A DNA stretch of 33,007 nt from a virus, in the IMG/VR virus record IMGVR_UViG_3300021076_000097, positions 1-33,007 of that record; one strand, 5' to 3'. A program made the translations under genes and the position numbers. Shown here one piece after another: positions 2,168-31,002 of this stretch; positions within the stretch are counted from its first letter, which is position 1; each line of letters starts with the position of its first letter. Below the pieces are notes generated by a model. It saw nothing but the letters and a program-made list of their open reading frames with translations, made no database searches and was not told the DNA's origin.

Positions 2168-2180
2168 TATAGTCTCCCTG

Positions 2181-2214
2181 TCTGCATCACGCAGATAGTT
2201 TGGGCAGTATTATA
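2181..2214 (-). promoter_or_regulatory. Possible promoter and leader hairpin before the tail fibre gene
   Basis: The 75-base gap between the giant ejection protein gene and the tail fibre contains, on the minus strand, a perfect TATAAT (2214-2209). It is followed by a small hairpin, TCTGC-GTGAT-GCAGA (2195-2181), and then the GGGAG ribosome site. No good -35 box stands 16-18 bases upstream, so this is only a candidate internal promoter for the fibre genes. Confidence 0.28.
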
Positions 2215-2242
2215 GGCTATATTTGGTTAAAAGGCTAGGGGG

Positions 2243-5200: not shown

Positions 5201-7519
5201 TACTTTTTGATCTGGTATATTCTCAACAGAACGATAAATATCGGTTAATAATTTCTTTAATTTAGCAAATATATCAGACATTGCCTCATTGGGCGCATGA
5301 CCTTCCATAAAATACCGCTCGGTAGCACGCGCAAATGATTCGTGCTGTGATCTAGTAAAGCCGCTCCAATTGCCTTTTGCGTTGCCGAGCCATTTTCTTA
5401 TATTTGCAACATCATCGACTAGTTGCTTTGGCGCACCATCCTCAGCCGCATATTTTGCCATAATATCAAGAAAGTGATGTGCGCTTTCATGAATAAACGT
5501 GGAGGCATCGGCACGCTTCATCAACCGTATTATAGCCCTACCAGTGTTGGATACATACGTAGGTATATACGAACCTTTGGCTTTTTGCTCCAAAGTTCCC
5601 TTTTGTGCAAGTTGGGTTACGCTTTGGTTCTGTTTTACGACATCGGCACCCTCGCGCTTATACCAATCTGCGATTGTTCCTCGCGCACCCCCATACAAAT
5701 CAGACATACTTTGGAAGAATGTTGCCACAACTTGTGCTGTTGAATGAGCTTCTTCTGCGCTCCTTCCTGCTGCGACTTGCTTGGCTATAACATCATTTAC
5801 CACGGAATTACGCATTTGCTCTTTCGATGCGGTATTTTCTTGTGGCTCTTCTTGTGGTTCTTTTTCTCCAATTATATCGCCAAGATGTGCCTCAACATTA
5901 TATTTTGCAACATTCAATTTTGGTTCTGGGACTGTTTGAGTTTCCGGCATTTTCTCGGAAGCATCTCGATAAGCTTTGTTTACCTCATCGGCCAAACCTT
6001 CGCGCTCTTTTGATAGATCGCTTATCTTACTTCTAACGACGGCCATGTCTGGCGTATCTTCTGTCTTCTTGCCTTCAACAAGTTCATTAAACGCATCCGT
6101 TGCATCAGATATTTGAGAGCGCAAATCAGCAAGCATAGAAGCTTGTTTATTTGTCAATCTATCCTCAACACCATTAACCTTATCAAGTATATCACTGATT
6201 TTCTGATTATTTGTATCAGTCAAATTATCGACTTTGCCTTTCGCTTCAACAATATCAGGATCAATCATGATGTTATCATCACGCTTTTGCACCAGATCTT
6301 TCACCCATGTATGCAACCTTTGGAGTTGAGCCGTAATAGGGTCCCATTTAGAAAACACTTCAGGGTTTATTTGACGAGCAACATCGTGAATAGTTTGGGG
6401 TTCTACAGTCTTGACATTAATTGAAGGTGCTTCTTGATTTTCCGCTATCTCAGGCTTGATGGATGAATGAACTTCTGGTTCGCTAAATTTCAGAGGTTCT
6501 TTAAAGTAGTCGGCCTCCGTACCCATTGCGCTGGCGTTATTCAAACGCACAATTCTATCTGGCGGCTTTACCCACGAAGCACCTTCACCGCCCATAACAA
6601 TCTGGGAAACCTGCTGCCCCATATCAATGGCATCTTCTTTACTCATTCCAGATCGTTCGGCCTCTTCCTGCATAGCGGCACTAGCGCCTGACAATGTAGC
6701 TTCCATGCTAGGAAGAATCATTGCGGCCTTCATCATGACGGTTACTGGGTCTTCTGTGCTTACACCGCGTTCATCAACCTGTGGCGAAAACTGCTCAATC
6801 GTAGAGCGCAATTGATCCATATATGCGCTTTGCATAAATGCAGTTGCGTATGGCTTAATAATATCACCCGCAAGATTGGCCATGCTTGCGGCATTTTCCT
6901 GAAAACCATTGGAGTTCTTAAAGCTCTTTAGATCAGAACTGATTTCGTCATCATGGGCTATACTGGCTTGATCTGGAACTTTTGCTCTGAATAAATTAAC
7001 CACATCATTGTTTATCGAATTTCCAATATTGCTCATGCCAAAGAATGCGGCCTTTGCCGCACCGCCCAATGCGCTTACCGTCTTATCAACATTCATCATT
7101 GTTCTGGCATTATTAGGAGCAAGTTTTTGAAGTGCTTCGAATGCTGACTTATCCGTATCGTTCAATGTCGCCTTGTAATCGTCTATTTCCTTTTGTTCTT
7201 GAATCGGCTTTTGCTCAATAGCCAATTTCTCCTGCGCTTCAGGAGTGTTCATATGCGCAGATATATCCTCCGAAAAAGACGCCAAGTCGCTATTTGTTTG
7301 TTCCGCATGTTTTTGTGCTTCAGCGGCAAATGCGTTTAGATCGGATTGCTGCTGTGTCGCCTGTTCTGGCGTTATCGGTGCTGGCGCGACCTGTGGTGTG
7401 AGTTGTTGCTGTGCAGGTTGTTCAACAGTCTGTGATGTCGCAACTTGCTGTGGTGCGATTACAGGAGGCTGGTCAGGCTGTGCTGTAAGCACTTCTGTTT
7501 GGTTAACAGGATCGGCCAT
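2243..7519 (-). CDS. Giant internal virion (ejection) protein with zincin-type metallopeptidase domain
   Basis: This is the longest gene in the window: 1758 residues, the last and largest of three consecutive ejection-type proteins. Residues 1-150 are Gln/Pro/Ala-rich and probably disordered. The middle contains long charged helices. At about residues 670-790 lies a zincin-like domain: FIHESAHHFLD supplies HExxH (His677, Glu678, His681), and HESFARATERYFMEG (from about 726) supplies a likely glutamate ligand, followed by the helix IFAKLKKLLTDIYRS. This arrangement is known from phage polyvalent proteins. Residues about 880-980 are low-complexity Ser/Thr/Glu/Gly. The C-terminal third has hydrophobic Gly/Ala segments (for example GTVAFGMGMAGFITGGG, about 1430-1450) that may insert into membrane during genome delivery. 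ATG overlaps the previous stop (TAATG) and GGAGG lies six bases upstream. Confidence 0.85.
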   Translation of the reverse strand: MADPVNQTEVLTAQPDQPPVIAPQQVATSQTVEQPAQQQLTPQVAPAPITPEQATQQQSDLNAFAAEAQKHAEQTNSDLASFSEDISAHMNTPEAQEKLAIEQKPIQEQKEIDDYKATLNDTDKSAFEALQKLAPNNARTMMNVDKTVSALGGAAKAAFFGMSNIGNSINNDVVNLFRAKVPDQASIAHDDEISSDLKSFKNSNGFQENAASMANLAGDIIKPYATAFMQSAYMDQLRSTIEQFSPQVDERGVSTEDPVTVMMKAAMILPSMEATLSGASAAMQEEAERSGMSKEDAIDMGQQVSQIVMGGEGASWVKPPDRIVRLNNASAMGTEADYFKEPLKFSEPEVHSSIKPEIAENQEAPSINVKTVEPQTIHDVARQINPEVFSKWDPITAQLQRLHTWVKDLVQKRDDNIMIDPDIVEAKGKVDNLTDTNNQKISDILDKVNGVEDRLTNKQASMLADLRSQISDATDAFNELVEGKKTEDTPDMAVVRSKISDLSKEREGLADEVNKAYRDASEKMPETQTVPEPKLNVAKYNVEAHLGDIIGEKEPQEEPQENTASKEQMRNSVVNDVIAKQVAAGRSAEEAHSTAQVVATFFQSMSDLYGGARGTIADWYKREGADVVKQNQSVTQLAQKGTLEQKAKGSYIPTYVSNTGRAIIRLMKRADASTFIHESAHHFLDIMAKYAAEDGAPKQLVDDVANIRKWLGNAKGNWSGFTRSQHESFARATERYFMEGHAPNEAMSDIFAKLKKLLTDIYRSVENIPDQKVQINDDIRKMFDRMLGGGEGGYETVITPENMSGKEFADLHEQDAKETPPDKATDVADNVRNEINLTAKQHGDKEAENVIASAEKISGGATDSAGTESVATDATASEPPKIGTSGSATSPEGSELRPTAESGAESTEPTGELGAADRKAASEGSGNAAGDAGTAAGERAAAGTTHPAGGKPYYLDESSKRFRLDKINGSADAMAALNELVANNSDIMDARYGDAAYRQQKLIDANFELIEQLAEKSATLKVDAKKSPQDMLAYLRITQQLQIAAEIRAELQADWAHAGHALRRVSSSENIPDLASYIKSVTGKSLLQLEEEAKLMQSIDKPEAKAEFAVDMRTGRYKAFEDATLAFFRNNVLSNPLTHLAYLSNTFVKAYGRALINTPYAALIGAIRGDADRVTLEQIPYMLTVLNNAAMNSFPVAWGAVKSGIPFMRGSEEGVARTALDKVFQQRFSGKNDLLKAARVEARANKVNISDIDATLALRSANKHAAAKQAESYPAIHTYLQNEIEKSNKGYKQSLPGGIGHFLTVPERSIAGIHTLSYSVNYEMRIAEKAFQDGVSKGFTGDAMSNHLVKYTQNPPIEAMKDAHEKSLEAMYMKTSSAEMNRVLSTVSNNNIPGFRLVTGLAMPFAKIGVNMLDQGLIESTPLGLIKQSVRDDLLGKNGDIARANAGAKMMLGATAGTVAFGMGMAGFITGGGPTDYKQRNVLIAGGWKPYSIKVGNLYIPYKKWLGEMAPIVGACADFADGIHSLESGADVHIATGIAASFGENITSDTWLNGMSQLVDMFRNQDSAWKYIQNLATGFIPYSAALNMTRQQVDPTARSVTSNGVSNLWGFGPKIANRLPFVSYMLDPKVNVLGGKLPSGTGMGMGWDNNDPIVQKLQKLDIGISTIPKEIMGIKLTPDQYHEYAVVSGLALRDALWNDKNNGILQIPGFEKLSHYDQAKVIDSAITATRDAGVAYITSKYPDIRDRAAEVKEQLHNK

Positions 7520-9861
7520 TACTGACCTCCGGCCAAAGGAACCGCCGGACTTGGTTTCCAGCCCATTGCCTTAGCTTCTTCCATATAAGCTTTTAATTTA
7601 TCTGGATCATTTTGCACTTTTGAAGCATCATACAAAACATCAGGAATACTGCGAACTTTAGGAGCATTAGTCGCACTCTCAACAATTCCTGTTGCTTTTG
7701 GAACTGACAAATCTTTAACCGCATTTCCGATCCAATTCTTATTACTTGGATCATAATATTCCATTGGTGAAATGGGCGGCTTTGCATTTTGCATATTGAG
7801 TTCTATTTGTGGCAACATTGACATTACAGTATTTAATTTTTCAGCCGATGACCCTTTATTATCTGCATAACCCAAGATTTGTGCTTTTATAATGCCGTAA
7901 GCAGCAGCTTTTCTTTCTTTAACATTATATTCTTCGTCTATATCTTTCTTTGCTTGCTTAACGCCATCGCCGTTCAGCATTCCTTTTTTCATATAATCAT
8001 TAAGCTGAGAATAATCGGTTATTTTATGATTTATGATATCTTCCTGAACTTGTGCATAGTTTGAACCGTATTTTGTTGGGTCTGGCTTTCCGGCAGCTTC
8101 ACGGTTGATTTTTGCCATTGATATGGCAGCATCCATTGTGGTTTTATCATTGGCCATAAATGTACGCATATCTGGCGTAATGCGCGGATCGGTAATGGAA
8201 TAAAAATCAGGATTTGCTGTTACATCCTGAATTTTTGCAGAGTTTTGATTTTTGTATTGATCTGCAACTTCTTTTAACTGAGTAAAATGAGCTTTTATTC
8301 CTTCAATAGTTGCATTTCTTTCATCTACATTTTGTATTGCGTTGGCTTGCTGTAACGCCCCAGATAAATCATAGTTTTGATACGCCTGTAAAGGATTGGC
8401 TGCTGGCTGTTGTGTAATTCCGCCCATTTGATGAGGCGCAAGAATTGCTTTTCCTAAATCAATTTTATTGCCATTATTATCAACCGTATCGCACTTTACT
8501 TGACCATACATCGCGTCGCACTTCGATTGTATAAAATCAGTAAATTGCTTCGCTGTCATATCTACCCTACCGCCATTTTTGGCAATAGCTTGAACTGGAT
8601 CATAGGTTGGACTTTTGAATGGAGCTAAAACATCTACAGCTTTTTTATCAGGGTTGTTAAAGAGGGCAGGGCCACCACCAACACCTTGTTGATAAATGGT
8701 ATAAATTTGTGCTGGCGTTGCTGAGCCGTTAAATAATTTGTTTGCAATAACGGATGCGTCATTAAGTCTATCGACCATAATATTTGCAGAATCTTGCTTA
8801 TTAGCAGGAACAACACCTTGTACTTGCCCAATGTTATCACTTGTTCGCCCAAAAGATGATTCCAACCCGGCAGTCATTAGAGCAAGATTTGGATCAACAT
8901 TTTTGGCTTGAGCCGCAGAAGCAACAGCAGATTTAACTTGAACAACAGACGCACCACCCAATCCTGATGGAGGAAGCGGTTGGCCTGCATTTATTGCGGC
9001 AACATTAGATGCAGCAGTATTTTTCAAATTTTCAGCGTGAAGCGTTTTTTCAATTTCAACTTGTTGAACGCCATCTAAAGCATCTTTATTTTGCAAATAA
9101 ATACTATTTGCAAAACTAATATCCCCACGGGCAACCGAAGCTCCTACGACTTGTTGTGTTATTTTACCTGTTATTTGTCGTGCATTTTCATCAAGAATTA
9201 CTTTGCCTTGAGGATCGTTAGGATCAACGCCTCCTCCAGTTGGACTAGTAGCGTAAAGGGTTGATTTACCAACAGCCGATTGAATAGCTTGATTAATAAC
9301 ATTTGAGTTACTTCCAGCGCCGACAGCTATGCTTCCTTGTGCATCAACAAAATCATTTACGCCTTGTTTTTCATAAGCAGTCTGCTGTTCATCAAGATGA
9401 CGCGCCATACCATCTTGTAAATTACTTATATGCCTAACAGAAAAGCTTCGAACAAGGTTTTGTTGGATAGGAGGCAAATCTTTAATTGCATTTTCTTGTG
9501 CTTGATTTAAAGCATCAAGAGTTGGCTGGTATGCTTTTTGGGCATCCATGCCTTTCGTTTGATAATAATCACTAGATATTTTTGCGGTAGCAGGAACAAG
9601 TTGATTGGATATAATATCATCAGCATGGGCTTGCGAGGCCATTTCAGCGTAATGCGTAGCTATATCACTCGCTTCATCTCCTAACTGTTCGCCAACCTTA
9701 CCAGCGCCTTGCAATGCACCGCCAACTTGTGCACCAAAATCGTCCGGGTTTGCATGAGCATCAAAACGCGGCCCACGACCCGCAGGTGAGTCCGTATCCG
9801 CAATCCCAGATGGACTTGCGTTATAACCTTGATAAACGTCTTGAGGTTTTGGACCAGCCAT
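7519..9861 (-). CDS. Internal virion protein with lytic transglycosylase (SLT) domain
   Basis: The protein has 780 residues. Residues about 305-420 carry a lysozyme-like transglycosylase core: VKSAVASAAQAKNVDPNLAL, then TAGLESSFGR with probable catalytic Glu334, then IYTIYQQGVGGG. Such domains cut peptidoglycan glycan strands so that the ejected DNA channel can cross the wall (compare T7 gp16 and other podovirus ejection proteins). The N-terminal 300 residues contain Gln/Ala-rich helices, with ADTDSPAG and RGPRFDAHANPDDFGAQVG near the start. The remainder is helical without a motif I know. The domain is central rather than N-terminal as in T7 gp16. The gene is preceded by the gp14-like protein and followed by the giant ejection protein, so the three probably assemble as the core or ejection complex. 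Confidence 0.85.
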   Translation of the reverse strand: MAGPKPQDVYQGYNASPSGIADTDSPAGRGPRFDAHANPDDFGAQVGGALQGAGKVGEQLGDEASDIATHYAEMASQAHADDIISNQLVPATAKISSDYYQTKGMDAQKAYQPTLDALNQAQENAIKDLPPIQQNLVRSFSVRHISNLQDGMARHLDEQQTAYEKQGVNDFVDAQGSIAVGAGSNSNVINQAIQSAVGKSTLYATSPTGGGVDPNDPQGKVILDENARQITGKITQQVVGASVARGDISFANSIYLQNKDALDGVQQVEIEKTLHAENLKNTAASNVAAINAGQPLPPSGLGGASVVQVKSAVASAAQAKNVDPNLALMTAGLESSFGRTSDNIGQVQGVVPANKQDSANIMVDRLNDASVIANKLFNGSATPAQIYTIYQQGVGGGPALFNNPDKKAVDVLAPFKSPTYDPVQAIAKNGGRVDMTAKQFTDFIQSKCDAMYGQVKCDTVDNNGNKIDLGKAILAPHQMGGITQQPAANPLQAYQNYDLSGALQQANAIQNVDERNATIEGIKAHFTQLKEVADQYKNQNSAKIQDVTANPDFYSITDPRITPDMRTFMANDKTTMDAAISMAKINREAAGKPDPTKYGSNYAQVQEDIINHKITDYSQLNDYMKKGMLNGDGVKQAKKDIDEEYNVKERKAAAYGIIKAQILGYADNKGSSAEKLNTVMSMLPQIELNMQNAKPPISPMEYYDPSNKNWIGNAVKDLSVPKATGIVESATNAPKVRSIPDVLYDASKVQNDPDKLKAYMEEAKAMGWKPSPAVPLAGGQ

Positions 9862-9863
9862 GT

Positions 9864-10550
9864 CTAACCTTCTTGTACATCTTGTGCTACTTGACCGGCT
9901 GGTGACATATTATTATAAGCCGTACCGCTATTCAAACCACTGCCGCCACCATTCATGGTAAATTTAGCGTAATTGCTGGCAGCACTTCCCAACCCACCAA
10001 GTACAGAACTAGCAGCGCCAATCTCGCCAGCTGTAGTCGCATTGTTGGCAGCCATACTGTCCAATGTAGATTGAGCAGTATCGTTAGCTCCCTGCACTTG
10101 ATACCCATAAGCCGTTCGAGCAGCATTAGAGCGAATTGTAATGGCGTTTAATTCGCCAAGTTCACGAGCCGATGATTGTACTTGTAAGTTTGACCCAGAA
10201 TTTATGTCAACGCCAGATGCACCTTCGTTAGCAACAATGGCACCAAGTTTTGCACGTGACTGAAGCCCAGCTTGTTCAGCCTGTGCTGTTCCTGCTGCAC
10301 CAGCGTAATTAGCACTTTGTGTAGCTATAATAGCATTATTAGCAGCTATCTGGGCGTTGTATTTGTCAGCGGCAGATGTCGCGTTTCCCTGTTCTATGGC
10401 ACCAGCGGCACCAACGCCAGCAGCTGCTATGGATGTGATGGCACCTATAGCCCCCAAATTAGCTCCAATAGCTGCTGCGGCAGTTCCAAAGGTACCAGCC
10501 CCACCAGCGGCGGCGGCTATTCCAGCGGCAGATACAGTTCCACCCGACAT
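9864..10550 (-). CDS. Internal virion protein, T7 gp14-like
   Basis: The 228-residue protein is very rich in Ala and Gly. Residues 1-55 form a hydrophobic Gly/Ala stretch that could span a membrane. The centre has the helical pattern YNAQIAANNAIIATQSANY and the signature GASGVDINSGSNLQVQSS with ELGELNAITIRSNA, common in podovirus internal virion protein B/gp14 relatives. The tail is Gly/Asn-rich. A GGGGGAG ribosome site lies nine bases before ATG and overlaps the end of the cupin-like gene. Position just before the transglycosylase and giant proteins matches the gp14-15-16 order of T7. The role (pore formation in the outer membrane during ejection) is inferred from the family. Confidence 0.8.
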   Translation of the reverse strand: MSGGTVSAAGIAAAAGGAGTFGTAAAAIGANLGAIGAITSIAAAGVGAAGAIEQGNATSAADKYNAQIAANNAIIATQSANYAGAAGTAQAEQAGLQSRAKLGAIVANEGASGVDINSGSNLQVQSSARELGELNAITIRSNAARTAYGYQVQGANDTAQSTLDSMAANNATTAGEIGAASSVLGGLGSAASNYAKFTMNGGGSGLNSGTAYNNMSPAGQVAQDVQEG

Positions 10551-10556
10551 ATTATT

Positions 10557-11015
10557 TTACTCCCCCGTAATGGTAACATGATTGATGGCGTCTTCATTGC
10601 GCGAGAATAGAAGGTGCGTCTCATCCGTAAATTCTTCTTCAGCTTCTTCAACCGTTTTTGCGCTCGTTGGGAAGACCATTGTAACGTAAGTGTCACCTAT
10701 CGCATATCCAGCTTGTTTGCGGTTGGCGTTCCCAGAGAATACATTGTACCCATGCAATTCAATGGGTTCGTTATCAATATAAATAACAAAATCACCGCTC
10801 AAAATTAGTAATGTTGGAATCTTCATAAGCGAACCAACTATTGTCACACCAGCTGGAACCATAATCGTTCGTGAATACATTCCAGCGTGAATCAAATGAG
10901 ATGTCGGAATTAAGGTTTGTGGTAATTGACCAACAAAAGCCTCAAGACGACGAACATTGGCAATCGTCACTTCACTCATAGTATCTATGCGACGCTCAGC
11001 CACTGCATTAGACAT
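10557..11015 (-). CDS. Cupin-fold phage protein (hypothetical)
   Basis: The 152-residue protein runs VGQLPQTLIPTSHLIHAGMY, SRTIMVPAGVTIVGS, ILSGDFVIYIDNEP, then RKQAGYAIGDTYVTMVFPTS. This is the strand order of a single-domain cupin seen in a small conserved protein of many podovirus tail regions. The usual metal-binding histidines are mostly absent: the family's VGxxH position reads VGSLM here. A catalytic role is therefore unlikely and a structural one more likely. It overlaps the GNAT gene by eight bases, and this pairing with an acetyltransferase recurs in related phages as far as I recall. Function is unknown. Confidence 0.65.
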   Translation of the reverse strand: MSNAVAERRIDTMSEVTIANVRRLEAFVGQLPQTLIPTSHLIHAGMYSRTIMVPAGVTIVGSLMKIPTLLILSGDFVIYIDNEPIELHGYNVFSGNANRKQAGYAIGDTYVTMVFPTSAKTVEEAEEEFTDETHLLFSRNEDAINHVTITGE

Positions 11016-21738: not shown

Positions 21739-21928
21739 TTTCCACCTTTATGCCGCTTCCTTTAATGGCCATATTAATTGCTTTATCTCGAACCGCTATA
21801 AGCTTTTCTTTAATTGGCAAAAATCGTGGATCTTGATGCGAATGAACCATTTGCGCCGCAGCACCACTAGATTTTGTCAATCCGTCAATAAAACGTTTTA
21901 GAATTTCAGTTTGTTTTTCTTCGGTCAT
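21722..21928 (-). CDS. Post-portal protein, first member of a tandem paralogue pair
   Basis: The 68-residue protein begins MTEEKQTEILKRFIDGL. Its ATG overlaps the portal TGA in an ATGA junction, so translation is probably coupled to the portal gene. It resembles the N-terminal half of the next protein, including GL-x2-[SA]S-[GS]AA-x-QM and a following Asp/Asn-Pro, which suggests duplication. The function is unknown. Confidence 0.5.
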   Translation of the reverse strand: MTEEKQTEILKRFIDGLTKSSGAAAQMVHSHQDPRFLPIKEKLIAVRDKAINMAIKGSGIKVENVNRH

Positions 21929-23805
21929 TGGCCACCTCCGCCCGTGCCCAAAATTTGATTAAGAGCGGTTTGACCGCCGCCTATCTGAGTTGATGCAAGA
22001 GTTTGCCCAGCTTGTGCGGCTATATTTGCTGTTTGCGCAACATGCTGCATCGCTTGCATTTTAGCCGTTGCCTGAGCAGCCTTAGCTTGCATATCGTTAA
22101 TCTGTTTATATTGATCTGGCGAACGAATGATGCGCTGCTGGTTGCCAAGCAAATCGTTCATGACACGAACATATTGTTCAGCATCAAGAATGTTTTTGAT
22201 TTCAGGATATATAGGAGCCATATTACCAATTAAAGCAGCCAAACGTTCCAATCCGCCTGTAGCAGCAGCTTTTTGAGACAACGCCAACATAGAAACAAAA
22301 TTAACGCCCAGAGGCACGCCCCTTAACGAAGGGGGCGGTGGATCTATAAAACCTTTGCGTTGCAAAATTCCGTAAATACGTTTTAGTTTTAACTTTAAAA
22401 CTCCAAGCATATTTTCAATAACAGGACCAAGTACAGTTAATTTTTCCTGAACTTTTTGCGCCACTTCGTATGCCGTCATACGATCAGAACCAGCGCCTTG
22501 CTCCAACATCAAAAACAAATCATTAAAAAAAGCTACCTTGATGCGCTGCTCAATTGCAGCAATGTTCGCCGACATTGCCGCCACATCAGGATTAACTTGA
22601 TATATGGAACGCATACCCGTTCCAGCATCAAGTTTAGGCACGTATGTAACATGGCCGGGCAATGCCGACGATGGTTGGTTCTTCATTGACATATCGGCCA
22701 ACAAAGGTGGACGAACCTGCTTTTCAATGGCTTCCGCTAATCTGCGTGTCATAACTTGAAGCTGAATAACATCAGGAAGGGCGTCCATTCCAGGACTACG
22801 GCCATAGGCGTCGTTCGATTGTGTTGACCAACGAGCAACCGTAAACGGCTGGTCATGAAACCCACGAATTGATAAAGGCTCTTTGCTGCCAGAAGCCCAC
22901 ACCCAGTAAACTTCTCTCCACGCAAAATCGCCAGGCACTTTACCAATTTTTCCTTTTCCAACAGCAAAATTTGGTTCAATAGAATGTGATATAATGCGTT
23001 CTTGATCTAACGCGGAACCCTTTTGTGACCACATAGCTTTAATATCATCAGGTGGTGTTTGTGAGCCAAAAAAGTCTATAGTTTGCAGAATGGTTTGTAA
23101 GAATTGACGATTAAACGTATCCACTCTATTTGAGCCATCATTCCCTAAATAATATTCGCCAATACAAGGATTATAACAACGAATAATGTCTCTTTGATCT
23201 TCATAAATGAGACATGGAGCTGTCCCAAAAACAACCACATCTTCTTTTTCTTGGGCTTCAGATTCATAAAAATTAGAAGCAGCCAATATTTTATAAAAAC
23301 GATCTTCAGTTTCATCCATCCATTGGCGGCCAGCGGTATCAAGATCTTTATGGGCAATCGCCGAAACCATTTTAAACCATGGCCGCGATGGAGACACCAA
23401 GCCAGATACAAGGCCGCCCGAACAAATACGCGCGGCATAAGTAGCTGTAGGATCAACAATTGATTTATTGATTTCACGGCCACGAAGCATATTATTGGGG
23501 GTTGGCATACCACCAGAAGATTGAGTGAGCCAAATAGAACGACGAGGCAGTTCAAACTCAGCTAAATCAGACCAGTTTTGCATCCACCATGAATAACGCC
23601 ATGCGCGTAATCCGTTTAATCGTTCTGTTAAATGCTTTTCAAGTTCTTGCCAATCTTTACCTACCGGTTTTTTGTTCATAGGCGGATCGTTTGGCTGCAA
23701 ACTTAATACAGTTGGGCTTTCTTGATCGTAAAAAGCACCCACAGAATTTTTCGGCATTGCCACAGGGTTTTGTTTGGTTATTTTATTTAATAATGCCTTA
23801 CCCAC
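21925..23805 (-). CDS. Portal protein (podovirus head-to-tail connector)
   Basis: The 626-residue protein matches the T7-like head-to-tail connector family: WQELEKHLTERLNGLRAWRY, NWSDLAEFELPRRSIWL, DPTATYAARICSGGLVSGLV, SPSRPWFKM, then YGRSPGMDALPDVIQLQVMT and the stem-to-wing region AYEVAQKVQEKLTVLGPVIE. The C-terminal barrel is Ala/Gln-rich. Twelve copies form the DNA channel at the packaging vertex and bind terminase and tube A. The start is GTG at 23805 with AGAGG about nine bases upstream; it overlaps the previous gene by eight bases. Confidence 0.93.
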   Translation of the reverse strand: MGKALLNKITKQNPVAMPKNSVGAFYDQESPTVLSLQPNDPPMNKKPVGKDWQELEKHLTERLNGLRAWRYSWWMQNWSDLAEFELPRRSIWLTQSSGGMPTPNNMLRGREINKSIVDPTATYAARICSGGLVSGLVSPSRPWFKMVSAIAHKDLDTAGRQWMDETEDRFYKILAASNFYESEAQEKEDVVVFGTAPCLIYEDQRDIIRCYNPCIGEYYLGNDGSNRVDTFNRQFLQTILQTIDFFGSQTPPDDIKAMWSQKGSALDQERIISHSIEPNFAVGKGKIGKVPGDFAWREVYWVWASGSKEPLSIRGFHDQPFTVARWSTQSNDAYGRSPGMDALPDVIQLQVMTRRLAEAIEKQVRPPLLADMSMKNQPSSALPGHVTYVPKLDAGTGMRSIYQVNPDVAAMSANIAAIEQRIKVAFFNDLFLMLEQGAGSDRMTAYEVAQKVQEKLTVLGPVIENMLGVLKLKLKRIYGILQRKGFIDPPPPSLRGVPLGVNFVSMLALSQKAAATGGLERLAALIGNMAPIYPEIKNILDAEQYVRVMNDLLGNQQRIIRSPDQYKQINDMQAKAAQATAKMQAMQHVAQTANIAAQAGQTLASTQIGGGQTALNQILGTGGGGQ

Positions 23806-24424: not shown

Positions 24425-24720
24425 TATTGTCCCAAAAGATTTGTCTGAGCCGTGCTTTGTGGAACCGTAAGTCCCTGTTCCCCCAGAGGCCCTGCTGTTC
24501 CACTGGCAGCAGCCGCCCCACCCGCCGAAGCAGCCGACCGACTGCGAGCCGTTGCGGTAGCCTCGGATGATTGATTAATTGTTTGAGCTGCAATAGGAGG
24601 GGAAGCAGCCGGAGGCGGCACAGGAATAGCAGCAGCCGCTGGAGCAGACGGAGCGCCTCCGCCGAAACCATCACGATTAGATTTTGCGCGGAATCGCGCA
24701 TATTTAGAAAATAACTTCAT
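24424..24720 (-). CDS. Ala/Pro-rich linker-like phage protein
   Basis: The 98-residue protein has a short basic start (MKLFSKYARFRAKSNRD), a long Ala/Pro/Ser/Gly section and the C-terminal GLTVPQSTAQTNLLGQ. Small proteins of this design, with Pro/Ala-rich middles and a conserved end near LLGQ, are frequent just before podovirus portal genes; their role is unknown. It is joined to the genes on both sides by ATGA and TAATG overlaps. The repetitive GC-rich DNA creates long frames on other phases, which I regard as shadows. Confidence 0.6.
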   Translation of the reverse strand: MKLFSKYARFRAKSNRDGFGGGAPSAPAAAAIPVPPPAASPPIAAQTINQSSEATATARSRSAASAGGAAAASGTAGPLGEQGLTVPQSTAQTNLLGQ

Positions 24721-25160
24721 TTTAACTCCTTGTTTAACAAAACGTGACCTCGGCGATACCCGTAGTTATTCATATAAACTTCCCATGTAGGCGGGCATTC
24801 AATTTGAGACAAAGAGCAACCAATACTCTTTCCCCAATCTTCAATTTGTCGAACAAACCCCACCCAATCCTTAATTTTTTCCATGAAAGCCTGCCAACCT
24901 TCAACACCAACCCCCATCAAACACATAATTCTTAAAGTCTTTGTCTGTGGATAATCAAGTACTTGTGTTAATACAAACCCATCTAACGTGTTATCATTAA
25001 AAGCTAACCATATTTGCATCGTGTTGGCTTTAATCTCGTTTATTAGATCTTCAGGTTTATATCGTCCCAAGCTATAATTACATGCAATTTCTAGTTTTGG
25101 CATTATGTCGTTTAAGACATCATGCAAATCCTCATACAGCGTTGGCACAAGCCGGTTCAT
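24717..25160 (-). CDS. GNAT-like phage protein near the portal
   Basis: The 147-residue protein reads RLVPTLYEDLHDVLNDIMPK, SLGRYKPEDLINEIKANTMQ, IWLAFNDNTLDGFVLTQVLD, then KTLRIMCLMGVGVEGWQAFM and a tail with YMNNYGYRRGHVLLNKEL. The order beta-alpha-alpha-beta and the final strand after a Gly-Tyr turn fit the acetyltransferase fold that recurs before portal genes of podoviruses. The acetyl-CoA loop (Q/RxxGxG/A) is poorly kept, with LMGVGVEGW in its place, so it may not be catalytic. ATGA overlaps link it on both sides. Confidence 0.6.
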   Translation of the reverse strand: MNRLVPTLYEDLHDVLNDIMPKLEIACNYSLGRYKPEDLINEIKANTMQIWLAFNDNTLDGFVLTQVLDYPQTKTLRIMCLMGVGVEGWQAFMEKIKDWVGFVRQIEDWGKSIGCSLSQIECPPTWEVYMNNYGYRRGHVLLNKELK

Positions 25161-25385: not shown

Positions 25386-25688
25386 CTAGATTATCGTTCT
25401 TGCATAACCCGTTAAAGCTTGAATGAATTTCCACGCAGATTCTTTATCGAACTGCATCCAAGCGCATTCCTTTTCAAATTCAAGCGTTAGCTTATTATCG
25501 GATACGCCAATTTTCATTGCCATTTGAGAAGGCATCTCCGTTGGCTTAACAATTGTACCATCGGGCTTTGGCTTAAAAACAACGCCCTGATCCGGCGCTG
25601 CTGGTTTTGCTGCAAACCCAGTTCCATTGCCATCAAGATTATTTGGCAATCCCATTGCGCTACGAATCTTTTCAAAATTGTCGGTCAT
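25386..25688 (-). CDS. Small phage protein (hypothetical)
   Basis: The 100-residue protein starts MTDNFEKIRSAMGLPNNL, continues with a Pro/Lys-rich linker and ends with a compact domain, KLTLEFEKECAWMQFDKESA, then WKFIQALTGYARTII. The LxFxxxxxWmxf-D-AxxfxxaL pattern is common in small phage proteins of unknown role. It begins two bases after the GT9-like gene and is the last before the hairpin cluster, possibly closing the glyco-cassette transcript. Confidence 0.5.
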   Translation of the reverse strand: MTDNFEKIRSAMGLPNNLDGNGTGFAAKPAAPDQGVVFKPKPDGTIVKPTEMPSQMAMKIGVSDNKLTLEFEKECAWMQFDKESAWKFIQALTGYARTII

Positions 25689-25690
25689 GT

Positions 25691-26428
25691 TTACTCCGTT
25701 ATTTCCAAATGTTCAGCATCAGGCACAAAATGCCACGGCAGTTTTAAAATATTTACAAGCGGCTCAAAGCTAACTGGTTTGTAACGAGATATAACATACA
25801 AAGGTTTTTGTAGTTTCAAAACCTCGCACAGCAACACCAGTGATGTATCTATTGTAATTACCCGTTCTGCTTTTTCAATAACTCCAATCCAATCAAACAA
25901 AGTAAAACCAGAAATTTCACGCAAATACACCGCATTTAATTGCGTATTAATTTGCATTTCGCCCGTGCTGCAATGACCATTAACCAATGTGTAAGAGTTT
26001 TCAATTTTTAGTTTTTTTTCCAATTCTGCCTCTTTTTTAGGCAAACGTTTAATTTTGACATAATTTGCCCAATCCGACCAATCCATTTTCAAAAACGAAT
26101 ATTTGGATGTCATCATACTGCCGTTCATCGCCTGATAGGCAGACCCTATGGGTAAAAACACGAACTTATCCGAATGACGGACAGGGGATGTAAACGGTTT
26201 ATTGGCCGTCTCATTATGCAATTTGGTAAACTCGTTAGAATATTCAAAGTCAGTTCCTAAAATTTGATACTCGACATTAGGATGGGATTCAAAATAAGAA
26301 GCAATCCAATAATGGCGATCAAGTAATGGGAAAACAACTTTAAACCCCATGTCAGCATATCGCTTAACAATCTTTTGGATAAACATGACATCGCCAATCC
26401 CATGCGGTTGGTCAATCATGATTTTCAT
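25691..26428 (-). CDS. GT9/heptosyltransferase-like glycosyltransferase
   Basis: The 245-residue protein shows the GT-B order of GT9 enzymes. The N-terminal PHGIGDVMFIQKIVKRYADM resembles the nucleotide-sugar family's glycine-rich start (GDxLxxxP), and the C-terminal half has YTLVNGHCSTGEMQIN, a SGFTLFDWIGVIEKAERVIT strand-helix, TIDTSLVLLCEVLKLQKPL in the donor-binding position, then YVISRYKPVSFEP. At 245 residues it is shorter than bacterial heptosyltransferases (about 320-350). It overlaps the methyltransferase by ATGA and probably acts in the same glycan pathway. Activity and sugar are unknown. Confidence 0.65.
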   Translation of the reverse strand: MKIMIDQPHGIGDVMFIQKIVKRYADMGFKVVFPLLDRHYWIASYFESHPNVEYQILGTDFEYSNEFTKLHNETANKPFTSPVRHSDKFVFLPIGSAYQAMNGSMMTSKYSFLKMDWSDWANYVKIKRLPKKEAELEKKLKIENSYTLVNGHCSTGEMQINTQLNAVYLREISGFTLFDWIGVIEKAERVITIDTSLVLLCEVLKLQKPLYVISRYKPVSFEPLVNILKLPWHFVPDAEHLEITE

Positions 26429-27108
26429 GCTTGCCTCGGTTTACACAAATAATTTCCACCCACAATTTCGCAATCATAATCGTAAGCCTCAAAAAACCTA
26501 CGAATTGCCCCCATATTCGATTTTATAATTTCAACAAAACAAATGGGCTTACATCTTTTAATTGTTTCTCTTGCGCCTTCTAATACATCAAACTCCATGC
26601 CTTCAACATCTATCTTGATCAACTTGGGTAACAGCCCAAACGCATCAATCATTGTTATACCGGCATGTTCGGTTGAATTTTGCCTAGGCTGAGTCAATTG
26701 TTCAGTTTGTCTATCGCCAAATTCAATGCTGCCGAAATTTAATTCTTTTGAATAATCAAATTTTGGAACGTTAATATATCCATGCTGTTTTCCTACGGCC
26801 AAGTTATAAGCATAAACATTCTCAAAAGCATTCAAAGCAATGCTTCCACAAAGCATGTTATAAATTATACGTTGCGGCTCAAATGCAAAAACAGTTTTTG
26901 CCCTCGAAGCCAAAGCCAACGAGAAACAACCAAAGTTAGCCCCAACATCTAAAAAAACATCATCAGAACCAATTAATTTTTCCAATAATTCAATTTCTGC
27001 ATGATCTATGGATTTGCCCGTTTCAACCAGAGCGTTTCTTTGATTAATGTCGTTTTTATTGACAAGCATTTTGCCGTAATTGGTGTCAATGATTTCAGTA
27101 TAGCTCAT
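26425..27108 (-). CDS. FkbM-type SAM-dependent methyltransferase
   Basis: The start is ATG 27108 (227 residues, MSYTEIIDTNYGKMLVN), since it overlaps the glycosyltransferase stop in an ATGA junction; a longer frame to 27156 would run far into that gene. Motif I is VFLDVGANFGCFSLALAS (Asp54, Gly56, Asn58), followed by acidic motif II VFAFEPQ, and later the FkbM signature LIKIDVEGMEFDVLEGARE with C-terminal PICFVEI. Family members O-methylate sugars or small polyketide-like acceptors. Between two glycosyltransferases it most likely methylates a sugar, possibly to cap a glycan. Confidence 0.85.
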   Translation of the reverse strand: MSYTEIIDTNYGKMLVNKNDINQRNALVETGKSIDHAEIELLEKLIGSDDVFLDVGANFGCFSLALASRAKTVFAFEPQRIIYNMLCGSIALNAFENVYAYNLAVGKQHGYINVPKFDYSKELNFGSIEFGDRQTEQLTQPRQNSTEHAGITMIDAFGLLPKLIKIDVEGMEFDVLEGARETIKRCKPICFVEIIKSNMGAIRRFFEAYDYDCEIVGGNYLCKPRQA

Positions 27109-28148
27109 GTCAAGGTTCCCAAATAGTCTTCCCATTCTTTTGCACGAGCATCCCAATTACACGCACGCGCGTAGGCAACTTGACCTTCCCTGTCAAACCA
27201 CGAAAGATTACTTATTGAATTAACAACATGCGCAGCAAACCTACCCGCCACGATAGGGGTAATATCAGGTTGTAAATCCATCAACGCCCCAAACCCAGCG
27301 CAGGTTTCAGGCAACGCGCCCAGCTCGGTTGATATAATCCCACAACCTGCCGCCATAGCTTCCATTGCGCTGATGCAAGAGGTTTCGGGAAACGTAGAAG
27401 GATATGTCCAGTAATCTATGCCAGACAATTCATCAGCCAACCGAACTTGCGATAATGCGCCGACATACTCAACGCCTCGTATATTCTTGGCCGTTTCATA
27501 CAATCCTTCATAAGGGTCAGTTTCTCCATAAATCGCCATGCTCGAAAATATCTTTAATTGACATTCAGGTATATGCTTTCGTATCGTCGAAAACGCCAAC
27601 AACAAAACATCCAACCCGCGATAAGGCGTCGATGTATAAGCAAGCGTAATGTTATCATGCAAACAACGCTCAACATGTAAGAACGGTTCGCTTATCGCAT
27701 TTTTGATAATTCTGGTTTTATCAAATATGCGAAACGACAATTCGTAACGCGACTTTTGCCATTCGCTTACAAATACAAACCCGGAATAAATGGATTTTTC
27801 TTCCGGCGTCGCCAAATTAAAACACGCCGGTTGATTGCTATCATGATGCGCCCACAAAACAATCGGCTTCTTGCAACCAACAGATTTCAATTTGCGACCC
27901 AATGGCACAGAAACGGGAATCAAAACATCATAATCATTGGGTTGAACTTTTTCACTTTGCGAAATGAATTTAACATTTTTAATTTCGCGTGGTTCCGTAA
28001 CACCGTTTACAACCGTAATGTCATGCCCACGCAACGCCAAAGCTTCCGACAATCCGGCCACAGCCGATTGCGTGCCTCCAAGGGGTTCGCTTAAACCCGT
28101 TAAACAATCATAAGCGCGTGGGGAAAGATCAATAAAAAGAAGTTTCAT
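27105..28148 (-). CDS. GT4-family glycosyltransferase
   Basis: The 347-residue GT-B enzyme starts MKLLFIDLSPRAYDCLTG with the donor/acceptor loop EPLGGTQSAVAGLSEALALR, then GHDITVVNG. The C-terminal domain has LAYTSTPYRGLDVLLLAFST, VEYVGALSQ and the GT4 EX7E region FPETSCISAMEAMAAGCGII (Glu...Glu), then STELGALPET. There is no membrane segment. It is joined by ATGA to the gene before it and after it, so the small 80-residue protein, this enzyme, the methyltransferase and the GT9-like protein form a translationally chained set. The substrate is unknown; a nucleotide sugar from the host is expected. Confidence 0.87.
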   Translation of the reverse strand: MKLLFIDLSPRAYDCLTGLSEPLGGTQSAVAGLSEALALRGHDITVVNGVTEPREIKNVKFISQSEKVQPNDYDVLIPVSVPLGRKLKSVGCKKPIVLWAHHDSNQPACFNLATPEEKSIYSGFVFVSEWQKSRYELSFRIFDKTRIIKNAISEPFLHVERCLHDNITLAYTSTPYRGLDVLLLAFSTIRKHIPECQLKIFSSMAIYGETDPYEGLYETAKNIRGVEYVGALSQVRLADELSGIDYWTYPSTFPETSCISAMEAMAAGCGIISTELGALPETCAGFGALMDLQPDITPIVAGRFAAHVVNSISNLSWFDREGQVAYARACNWDARAKEWEDYLGTLT

Positions 28149-28387
28149 GGCTCACCTGTGCGAATAATACGTACTCCACGGAAATGAAAAGTATCGTAAG
28201 CACCCTTCCATTCTTGGCCACTATCTGTGACGTATTGCCTGACTTCCCAAAGAAACTGGTCGAATGCGCGTGAACCCAAATAATGAACTTTTGGAAAATG
28301 ACCGCCCATTAGCGCGGCCATACTATCGAAATATCTGGCGTGCGCCGAAGCCATGTTTATTGTGGGCGATGGCGTAGGTTTACTCAT
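28145..28387 (-). CDS. Small soluble protein before the glyco-cassette (hypothetical)
   Basis: The 80-residue protein reads ASAHARYFDSMAALMGGHFP, KVHYLGSRAFDQFLWEVRQY, then a beta C-terminus FHFRGVRIIRTG. GAGG lies five bases before ATG, and ATGA overlaps link it to the glycosyltransferase downstream and to the possible membrane peptide upstream. No family is recognised. Confidence 0.5.
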   Translation of the reverse strand: MSKPTPSPTINMASAHARYFDSMAALMGGHFPKVHYLGSRAFDQFLWEVRQYVTDSGQEWKGAYDTFHFRGVRIIRTGEP

Positions 28388-28670: not shown

Positions 28671-28816
28671 TTCTCACCACCCATTTTCACCAACAACTGT
28701 TCAATAATCGTGCTGATCTTTAATCCCGTTTTTTTGACACGATCCAATAATATTTTGTCAGCCATGCGCGACAAACTAATCGTTCGTCTTACTGTATTTC
28801 CATTATCTACCGACAT
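28667..28816 (-). CDS. Ribbon-helix-helix DNA-binding protein (49 residues)
   Basis: This very short frame starts at ATG 28816 and ends in a TGA that overlaps the next ATG. The residues VRRTISLSRMADKILLDRVK, KTGLKISTIIEQLLVKMG have the Arc/MetJ/CopG arrangement: a beta-strand with alternating side chains (RTISLS), helix A, a Gly-x-x-x-S turn and helix B. Dimers of such proteins repress promoters and are common in phage and in toxin-antitoxin pairs. It overlaps the secreted-protein gene upstream by ten bases, in the same operon. A role in regulating the adjacent operon is inferred. Confidence 0.6.
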   Translation of the reverse strand: MSVDNGNTVRRTISLSRMADKILLDRVKKTGLKISTIIEQLLVKMGGEK

Positions 28817-29073
28817 GTATAACAATCCCCAAACGTGTTCGTAAATCGTTCAGCCGGAGTTTGCGCGTTATACTGTTGCAGCTCACGTTGCTGATCTTGA
28901 ATTTGCTGCTGATACTGCTGCTCTCGCACATCTTCCTGCATTTGCTGATTACGCGCCGCACCCTCATCATACGAATTGTCGTTATACGAATTATGCGACG
29001 AATACGAATCGTAACTGTCGTATTGAGCAAATGCAGGTGTCGAAATAACCATAAACAATAGTAGGTATTTCAT
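28807..29073 (-). CDS. Secreted Gln/Tyr/Ser-rich protein with C-terminal CxxC
   Basis: The 88-residue protein starts with a clean Sec signal peptide, MKYLLLFMVISTPAFA, with cleavage expected before Gln17. The mature part is low complexity: Asp/Ser/Tyr/Asn-rich (QYDSYDSYSSHNSYND), then a Gln/Glu-rich helix (EDVREQQYQQQIQDQQRE), and it ends TFGDCYTCR with Cys84 and Cys87. It could sit in the periplasm and bind metal or form a disulfide. AAGGAG lies eight bases before ATG. The gene is first after the TerL gap. Lysis accessory or superinfection roles are possible, but nothing in the sequence settles them. Confidence 0.65.
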   Translation of the reverse strand: MKYLLLFMVISTPAFAQYDSYDSYSSHNSYNDNSYDEGAARNQQMQEDVREQQYQQQIQDQQRELQQYNAQTPAERFTNTFGDCYTCR

Positions 29074-29270: not shown

Positions 29271-30719
29271 TTATAACCCTCTCGCTGCATCTGTCGTCAA
29301 TGGATTGTAGTTATATTGATGATTGCCTTCATCATGCTTCATGCCGCCATCAGCCTTCTTTGTGTCGGGTCGTGAATAACGCAGCATCATCATGGCATAG
29401 CGACAAGCGGATATTACGTCATCGAACTCTTTGACCACCTTGCCATCCTTGCGATGATACATAAGCATTTCATCAAAGAACAATTGGCAGCTATCAAAAA
29501 CTTTGAATGTGCCATTCTCCATTCGTGTAAGCATTTCCATAATGCCAGCTTCGACGCCGTTTGATCCATCATCGAAAGTTGCGCGTTCTGGCAACATATT
29601 CAGACCTTCACGCCGGTATTGATCGGCTAGGTTTTCACCTGATCCTTTATCATGCTGCAATCCGTCATGCGGCCACGACCACGGCAAATCTTTGCCCCAT
29701 GATTTTAACGCGCTGGCATGAATGGCAGGAATAGCCTCAGAGCGTTTATAAACATTGATGAGATAAATAATATCCGAATCAGGATTGTAAGCCAGTTTGG
29801 CCGCCGCTGTCGGATGATCCCAACCAAAGTCAATCCCGCCGATCTTGCGATACCATTGCGGAACCTCGAAACGCGGTATTTTAATCGCTTCTTCGGAAAT
29901 AGGAAATATGCGGCCACTGCCAAGCATCGGCTTGCCGTTAATGCGTGCCTCGCGTTCATGCGCGGGATAGCTGGCAATAATGCGCAGTTTTTCATCTTCT
30001 GAAATATGTGTCACATCGGATATCGTCATATTGATATCAACGCGATCCGGCGAAGGTTCATTCAAGAATCTACGGACAACGGTTGACATGCCAAGCAAAG
30101 GTGTAAATGTCGTCCACAAAATACCGCCGGTTGCATTGGTACGTGTGAGGATTTCCATATAAATATCATCTGGCGGTTCTTCGTCATTCCAAGCCCATTG
30201 CAACGTGTCGGCCTGGAACTTCTCGCGCCCCTGTTCATAGTATTTTAGCTTAATGCGCGACACGCCACCTCTGACATGCTGAACAAGTATCGTATCCGCA
30301 AGCCCTGCCACCCCACGCGCGTTAATGACTTCTTTAATATCCTTATGCGGAATGAACCCCGTTCCCTCTTTACCCACGGCGCCAATCAATAATCTTTGGA
30401 TGGTATCGCGTGTCACCTCGCCCGTAACACCGCTTGCCCAACCATCATTGGCTTTGTCAAAGCGTTTGCCATCCCACCAGTCAGGATAACGCCCCGTTGC
30501 GTGCATAGCAGCTTCAGCACCGCCAGCCAACGACTTGCCTAATTGGTTGCCTGCCCGAAACAATCTTTCACGTTTCGTCTTGCCCAGGCTGTGGAATTGT
30601 TTCTGTTTCGGGTACGGTTGATATAACTCGAGCTTCCGCCTCAATAACTGTTCCTCTATCTTGGCCTGAAACATCAGCAATTCGGATTGAGAGAACGTCC
30701 CTGAGTCGGAGAATGTCAT
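29271..30719 (-). CDS. Terminase large subunit
   Basis: The 482-residue enzyme (from ATG 30719) has an ATPase Walker A-type loop AGNQLGKS (Gly57 to Ser63), Walker B TLQWAWNDEEPP (Asp179, Glu180, Glu181), coupling motif WTTFTPL, then a nuclease domain with GGIDFGWDHPTA (Asp297), WPHDGLQ and FDDVISACRYAMMML near the end. It drives DNA into the prohead through the portal and cuts it. A ribosome site GAGGAG lies inside TerS, ten bases before ATG or seven before TTG 30722; both starts are possible. It overlaps TerS by about 150 bases in another frame. Confidence 0.93.
   Translation of the reverse strand: MTFSDSGTFSQSELLMFQAKIEEQLLRRKLELYQPYPKQKQFHSLGKTKRERLFRAGNQLGKSLAGGAEAAMHATGRYPDWWDGKRFDKANDGWASGVTGEVTRDTIQRLLIGAVGKEGTGFIPHKDIKEVINARGVAGLADTILVQHVRGGVSRIKLKYYEQGREKFQADTLQWAWNDEEPPDDIYMEILTRTNATGGILWTTFTPLLGMSTVVRRFLNEPSPDRVDINMTISDVTHISEDEKLRIIASYPAHEREARINGKPMLGSGRIFPISEEAIKIPRFEVPQWYRKIGGIDFGWDHPTAAAKLAYNPDSDIIYLINVYKRSEAIPAIHASALKSWGKDLPWSWPHDGLQHDKGSGENLADQYRREGLNMLPERATFDDGSNGVEAGIMEMLTRMENGTFKVFDSCQLFFDEMLMYHRKDGKVVKEFDDVISACRYAMMMLRYSRPDTKKADGGMKHDEGNHQYNYNPLTTDAARGL
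29705..29995 (-). other. Shadow frame inside TerL (not a gene)
   Basis: A 96-codon alternative frame lies wholly within the large terminase on the same strand. Its residues lack any pattern or ribosome site, and the overlapped TerL residues are the conserved nuclease part. I list it only to state that it should not be annotated. Confidence 0.1.
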
Positions 30720-31002
30720 CAAGCGTTAACTCCTCAAATGGATCAAGTTTCTTAATATCGAGTTGTTGGATCGGTTTGCCTTCAACGCGGTTAATGATTT
30801 CCTGAATGGCGGCGGAGTTGCCTTGCCTTGCTTGGTCAATAAGCTTGGCCGCTATTTCATGCGAAATTTTGGCGTCTGAGGGCAGTAAAATATTGTCGCT
30901 ACTCCCACTAGGTAAATTCAAACAAGCGACTAGAGCCTGTGTTATTGGCTTTCCTGATGGCCTTCCAGAAGGATTTCCAGATTGACCCGGCAAAAACACC
31001 AT
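30568..31002 (-). CDS. Terminase small subunit-like protein, DUF5681-type start
   Basis: I start at ATG 31002 (144 residues) since AAGGA lies nine bases before it. The in-frame TTG at 31011 directly abuts that site. The N-terminus MVFLPGQSGNPSGRPSGKPI is the phage DUF5681 signature (F-x-PGxSGNPxGRPxG), and the next region SHEIAAKLIDQARQGNSAAI then IINRVEGKPIQQ matches small terminase-type proteins that recognise DNA ends. The last 50 residues overlap TerL. It is the first gene of the minus-strand operon, beside the divergent control region, a natural place for a packaging initiator. Confidence 0.8.
   Translation of the reverse strand: MVFLPGQSGNPSGRPSGKPITQALVACLNLPSGSSDNILLPSDAKISHEIAAKLIDQARQGNSAAIQEIINRVEGKPIQQLDIKKLDPFEELTLDDILRLRDVLSIRIADVSGQDRGTVIEAEARVISTVPETETIPQPGQDET

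What the first reader, a model, noticed from the sequence alone, without database searches (positions are those of the whole stretch)
25691..28387. A chained glycan-modification cassette inside a phage morphogenesis operon
The sequence shows a GT4-type transferase, an FkbM-type methyltransferase and a GT9-like transferase, with a small leader protein, all joined by ATGA overlaps on the late-gene strand between TerL and the portal. Established knowledge gives these families roles in building and capping glycans. I infer a virion-glycosylation or host-surface modification pathway expressed late. This location differs from the usual conversion genes, which are expressed from a prophage at a genome end, and may be undescribed.
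Basis: partly seen in the sequence, partly recalled or inferred. Interest (0 to 1): 0.75.

Follow-up and report, generated by a model that had tools for sequence, protein, structure and literature searches.

The report
Sugar-modifying genes inside phage assembly operon
A peat-bog virus of bacteria carries two sugar-transferring enzymes, with a methyl-capping enzyme slotted between them in one species only, in the middle of its particle-building genes; most likely it decorates its own particles (or its host's surface) with sugars, and its close relatives are a natural with/without comparison for the cap.

Summary
Between TerL (29271-30722) and portal (21925-23805), on the late strand, lie an 80-aa ORF, a GT4 glycosyltransferase, an FkbM methyltransferase and a GT9-like protein, joined by three ATGA overlaps. 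Pfam/NCBIfam support GT4 and FkbM. The third has no family hit, but its predicted fold matches heptosyltransferases WaaC/WaaF and TibC. The phage is epsilon15-like.

New here: (1) a sister species from other metagenomes keeps GT4 (95%) and GT9 (97%) under purifying selection (dN/dS 0.11 and 0.05) but lacks FkbM and the 80-aa ORF. FkbM is a clean 680-bp slot-in between two ATGA junctions, so it is an optional cap. (2) In phage contigs carrying relatives of this FkbM and a GT9 match, the two lie within 2 kb in 15 of 23 cases (3.6 expected). (3) Unrelated phages also carry such genes in the head/packaging module, so the location is unusual but not unique. Clustering of FkbM near TerL is not significant in my sample.

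Target is undetermined. I favour cytosolic glycosylation of virion proteins (0.45) over host-surface modification (0.33). Virion glycosylation is known in mycobacteriophages. New variant of a known kind.

The parts
28145..28387 (-). 80-aa ORF, overlaps GT4 start by ATGA; function unknown, specific to this species
   Evidence: ORF; no Pfam/PHROG/NCBIfam hit; only the conspecific contig in the viral collection; absent from sister species
27105..28148 (-). GT4 glycosyltransferase (GT-B, retaining type by family), EX7E motif at residues 255-263
   Evidence: PF13692 1.3e-9, PF00534 1.4e-8; phrog_2170 glycosyltransferase 2.6e-25; PDB sequence relatives D-inositol-3-P GT, PimA; dN/dS 0.108
26425..27108 (-). 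FkbM-family SAM-dependent methyltransferase; optional 680-bp unit between two ATGA junctions
   Evidence: PF05050 1.1e-17, TIGR01444 2.2e-25, motifs DVGANFG and DVEGMEFDVLEGA; absent from sister species with the junction closed at ATGA
25691..26428 (-). GT9-like (heptosyltransferase-fold) glycosyltransferase, 245 aa
   Evidence: No Pfam/PHROG/NCBIfam hit; AlphaFold2 pLDDT 81.7, pTM 0.80; Foldseek WaaC 1.4e-5, 3tov GT9 3.3e-5, WaaF 9.3e-5, TibC 1e-3; dN/dS 0.045
29271..30722 (-). terminase large subunit, upstream boundary of the insertion zone
   Evidence: phrog_5653 and phrog_2
21925..23805 (-). portal (epsilon15-type head-tail adaptor), downstream boundary
   Evidence: phrog_332 1.2e-109; 33-34% to epsilon15 portal
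25386..25688 (-). 100-aa ORF directly downstream of the cassette (2-base gap), conserved 98% in sister species; function unknown

Best explanation
A small, soluble, cytosolic glycan-modification module translated together with the late morphogenesis genes. Shown: families and folds, late-strand position, purifying selection on the GT core, clean presence/absence of FkbM. Inferred: catalytic activity, and that the acceptor is a virion protein of the phage (capsid, tail or fibre) made in the same cytosol at the same time, rather than the host envelope.
For: Family and fold assignments. GT4 and GT9 kept at 95% and 97% identity with dN/dS 0.108 and 0.045, in the range of virion and packaging genes (TerL 0.036, portal 0.062, others up to 0.2). 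FkbM present or absent at an ATGA junction. None of the three enzymes shows a strongly hydrophobic (membrane-like) segment, and the cassette contains no flippase- or ligase-like membrane protein, as expected for a cytosolic acceptor. FkbM and GT9 are a recurrent phage pair: 15 of 23 within 2 kb against 3.6 expected, the 15 FkbM at most 63% identical to each other. Unrelated phages hold comparable genes in the head/packaging module: L280 TPR-GT9/TerL/FkbM/SU10 portal, L281-L283 FkbM after GpA-type TerL, L028 GT4-methyltransferase-GT2 fusion, MW202497 TerL-GT2-GroEL-GT-cap-portal, MW202512 MCP-TPR-FkbM. Precedents: virion glycosylation in mycobacteriophages Che8, Corndog, Myrna (Freeman 2023, as reported in PMC12363180); cytosolic O-glycosylation by TPR-GT FlmG (PMC7591256); GT plus O-methyltransferase capping of capsid glycan in PBCV-1 (PMC9614988).
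Against: No direct evidence of any glycan on any virion. GT9/heptosyltransferase-fold enzymes are classically LPS-core enzymes acting at the cytosolic membrane face, so host LPS is a natural acceptor too. Neither GT has a TPR or other obvious protein-binding domain. Clustering of FkbM near TerL in phage contigs is not significant (14 observed, 12.2 expected within 10 kb). The bacterial GT4 relatives are not generally near flagellin genes.
Confidence: 0.45

Rival explanations
1. Late host-surface modification: the two GTs add (and FkbM caps) residues on LPS core or another envelope glycan from the cytosolic face, blocking superinfection or re-adsorption of progeny to debris.
For: GT9 fold is that of WaaC/WaaF LPS heptosyltransferases. 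Pelagimyophage authors interpret GTs near tail-fibre genes as O-chain modification (PMC7029224). T4-like cyanophage relatives of the GT9 gene lie in larger sugar-gene clusters.
Against: No membrane component, no sugar-lipid GT and no ligase in the cassette; no integrase among the relative's scanned genes, so lysogenic conversion as such is unlikely; late position leaves little time for host remodelling.
Confidence: 0.33
2. Phage DNA hypermodification: the GTs glycosylate modified bases.
For: Phage GTs can hypermodify DNA (Pyle 2024, cited in PMC12619734).
Against: No base-hydroxymethylation gene among the early genes scanned in the 58.7-kb relative (not every gene scanned); GT4 is PimA/MshA-like, GT9 is WaaC-like; FkbM members are known from sugar or small-molecule O-methylation (own knowledge).
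Confidence: 0.07
3. Recently acquired passenger or moron cassette without current benefit, kept by chance.
For: FkbM and the 80-aa ORF are specific to one of two species; none of 149 other TerL/portal relative loci has a GT4 or GT9 homologue and only one has FkbM.
Against: Strong purifying selection on both GTs over about 0.3 synonymous changes per site; the GT4+GT9 pair occurs in six contigs besides the window.
Confidence: 0.1

Closest known systems
Mycobacteriophage virion glycosylation (Che8 gp110, Corndog gp38, Myrna; Freeman et al. 2023, read only through PMC12363180)
   Same: Phage-encoded glycosyltransferases in a tailed phage; acceptors there are capsid and tail-tube proteins
   Different: Different hosts; no FkbM-GT9 pair mentioned in what I read; in cluster F1 phages such as Maravista the GTs are near the genome 3' end, not between TerL and portal (PMC11256854)
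Caulobacter FlmG flagellin O-glycosylation (PMC7591256)
   Same: Cytosolic GT-B enzyme modifying a self-assembling structural protein; several phages with FkbM carry TPR-GT9 proteins of similar layout
   Different: The window's GT9-like protein has no TPR domain; sugar and acceptor unknown
PBCV-1 A064R/A061L capsid glycan machinery (PMC9614988)
   Same: Virus-encoded GTs plus SAM methyltransferases that cap a virion glycan; a PBCV-1 protein (Q89398) is the second-best viral fold match of the GT9-like protein
   Different: Giant algal virus, N-glycans, different GT and methyltransferase enzymes; Q89398 function not established here
Glycan gene clusters in head/packaging modules of Manatee Spring Caudoviricetes (MW202497, MW202512, MW202524, MW202462)
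   Same: GT and/or FkbM genes beside TerL, portal or MCP on the late strand
   Different: Independent arrangements; other GT families, GroEL, sugar synthase genes

Membership tests
GT4 glycosyltransferases | Pfam Glycos_transf_1 domain above gathering score | tested here: met
   PF13692 38.9 bits vs 27; PF00534 34.9 vs 26.4
GT4 glycosyltransferases | EX7E motif in C-terminal domain | tested here: met
   E255-E263
FkbM methyltransferases | PF05050/TIGR01444 above cut-off, SAM motif | tested here: met
   65.2 bits vs 22.7; 89.8 vs 37.7; DVGANFG
GT9 (heptosyltransferase) family | Sequence match to PF01075 | tested here: not met
   No Pfam hit at E<=1; hence called GT9-like, not GT9
GT9 (heptosyltransferase) family | GT-B heptosyltransferase fold | tested here: met
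   Top PDB fold matches WaaC, 3tov, WaaF, TibC, E 1e-5 to 1e-3, TM 0.4-0.5
Phage virion glycosylation system | Sugar on capsid or tail proteins | not testable with these tools
   needs glycoproteomics of virions
Phage virion glycosylation system | Phage-encoded GT expressed during virion assembly | tested here: inconclusive
   Late strand between TerL and portal; no transcription data
Temperate seroconversion (gtr-type) cassette | GtrA flippase/GtrB bactoprenol GT membrane proteins | tested here: not met
   No membrane-like segments in cassette proteins; no gtr families in Pfam hits

The most novel reading that the evidence does not exclude
FkbM plus GT9-like glycosyltransferases form a widespread, mobile virion-glycan kit of environmental tailed phages, with the methyl cap gained and lost as a single ATGA-flanked gene that alters the particle's surface glycan.
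Probability: 0.3. Interest if true: 0.75.

Novelty: new variant of a known kind. Interest (0 to 1): 0.5.

Why it matters
Virion glycosylation has been shown in few phages. This lineage offers two near-identical sister phages that differ by one methyltransferase gene next to a conserved GT core, a ready comparison for what capping does. The FkbM-GT9 linkage across divergent phages gives a searchable signature for phages that may glycosylate their particles or hosts.

Tried and rejected
Enrichment of FkbM near TerL: 14 of 23 within 10 kb vs 12.2 expected, not significant; all 14 are co-oriented with TerL, but phage genomes are strand-biased. Link of the bacterial GT4 relatives to flagellin genes: one flagellin-like gene in L198 and a second, weaker GT4 copy in G102 about 8.5 kb from a flagellin, otherwise not near; dropped. 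ATGA overlaps as a cassette mark: rejected, common in the operon. Fold of the 80-aa ORF: uninformative. Megablast against known phages: no match. Corndog record and Freeman 2023 full text are not held. Sigma-70 promoter and terminator scans: near chance counts.

Full report
Observation. Four ORFs lie head to tail on the minus strand at 28387-25691 between TerL and portal. The junctions leader/GT4, GT4/FkbM and FkbM/GT9 are exact ATGA overlaps. TerL (29271-30722) and portal (21925-23805) are confirmed by PHROGs. The portal is epsilon15-like at 33-34% identity. ATGA overlaps occur at four other junctions in the same operon, so they show tight packing rather than a special cassette.

Families. 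GT4: PF13692 1.3e-9, PF00534 1.4e-8, phrog_2170 2.6e-25, EX7E motif present. FkbM: PF05050 1.1e-17, TIGR01444 2.2e-25, with SAM motif. The third protein has no Pfam, PHROG or NCBIfam hit, but an alignment of viral relatives shows conserved motifs including FDWIGVIE. An AlphaFold2 model (pLDDT 81.7, pTM 0.80) matches WaaC, GT9 3tov, WaaF and TibC in the PDB. It is GT9-like by fold, with modest TM-scores of 0.4-0.5. The best viral fold matches are cyanophage and PBCV-1 proteins of unknown function.

A natural comparison. Six IMG/VR contigs carry GT4 and GT9. One (41,453 bp) is the same species as the window (99.9% over the window). The other five belong to a sister species: TerL and portal 98%, GT4 95%, GT9 97%, but no FkbM and no 80-aa ORF. 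At DNA level the FkbM unit fills exactly the space between two ATGA junctions; without it, the GT4 stop and GT9 start share one ATGA. I cannot tell gain from loss, because none of 149 other TerL- or portal-related loci has a GT4 or GT9 homologue and only one (L061) has FkbM, just downstream of TerL (many of these loci are short). Nei-Gojobori dN/dS between the two species is 0.108 for GT4 and 0.045 for GT9, against 0.036 for TerL, 0.062 for portal and 0.007 for the capsid protein. The core enzymes are under purifying selection.

Generality. An FkbM profile retrieved 80 viral loci. In 50 contigs of at least 11.5 kb, 23 have a GT9 match; in 15 of these FkbM and GT9 are within 2 kb (3.6 expected from random placement in the same contigs; 0 of 20,000 simulations reached 15), and the 15 FkbM proteins are at most 63% identical. 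This is a real recurrent pair. Position next to TerL is not enriched by the same test. Individual examples in unrelated phages are clear: TPR-GT9, TerL, FkbM, SU10-type portal in L280; FkbM after GpA-type TerL in L281-L283; FkbM followed by TPR-GT9 in L278 and L286. Annotated GenBank phages show TerL-GT2-GroEL-GT-portal (MW202497), MCP-TPR-FkbM (MW202512), MCP followed by three GT-type genes and methyltransferases (MW202524) and mannosyltransferase-FkbM-TerL (MW202462).

Mechanism. The three enzymes have no membrane-like hydrophobic segment and sit in the late operon, so their acceptor should be available in the cytosol late in infection. Virion proteins fit this; so does LPS core at the cytosolic membrane face. 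Precedents for the first: mycobacteriophage capsid and tail-tube glycosylation (Freeman 2023, as reported in PMC12363180), FlmG (PMC7591256), PBCV-1 GT plus O-methyltransferases (PMC9614988). Precedent for the second: interpretation of pelagimyophage GTs (PMC7029224). An FkbM-domain gene was among the most transcribed genes of bS21 phages alongside MCP, which those authors read as late-stage replication (PMC9723584). I give 0.45 to virion and 0.33 to host surface.

Novelty. Phage glycosyltransferases, virion glycosylation and GT/FkbM genes in structural modules all exist in the record. What I did not find described (8 literature searches in an open-access library only) is the FkbM-GT9 pair as a recurrent phage module and the single-gene gain/loss of the cap. 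New variant of a known kind.

Noticed in passing
window 28807-29073 (-): 88-aa Tyr/Ser-rich protein with an apparent signal peptide (MKYLLLFMVISTPAFA), 89% conserved in the sister species, between TerL and the cassette; moron-like.
   Followed up: no
window 24717-25160 (-): 147-aa ORF is only 59% identical between the sister species while most neighbours are 92-99%: fast-evolving or swapped.
   Followed up: partly
L205:3911-8784: In an Azospirillum MAG the GT4 relative is fused into a 1033-aa protein and overlaps a TPR-GT9 gene by 4 bases, beside a GT41 (OGT-like) gene.
   Followed up: partly
L287 (MW202497.1) 1855-10752: GroEL-annotated gene between two glycosyltransferases, between TerL and portal.
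   Followed up: no
L276:13517-14440 and L275:18701-19564 (58.7-kb relative): DNA methyltransferase and ArdC-like anti-restriction gene in the relative's non-structural regions.
   Followed up: no
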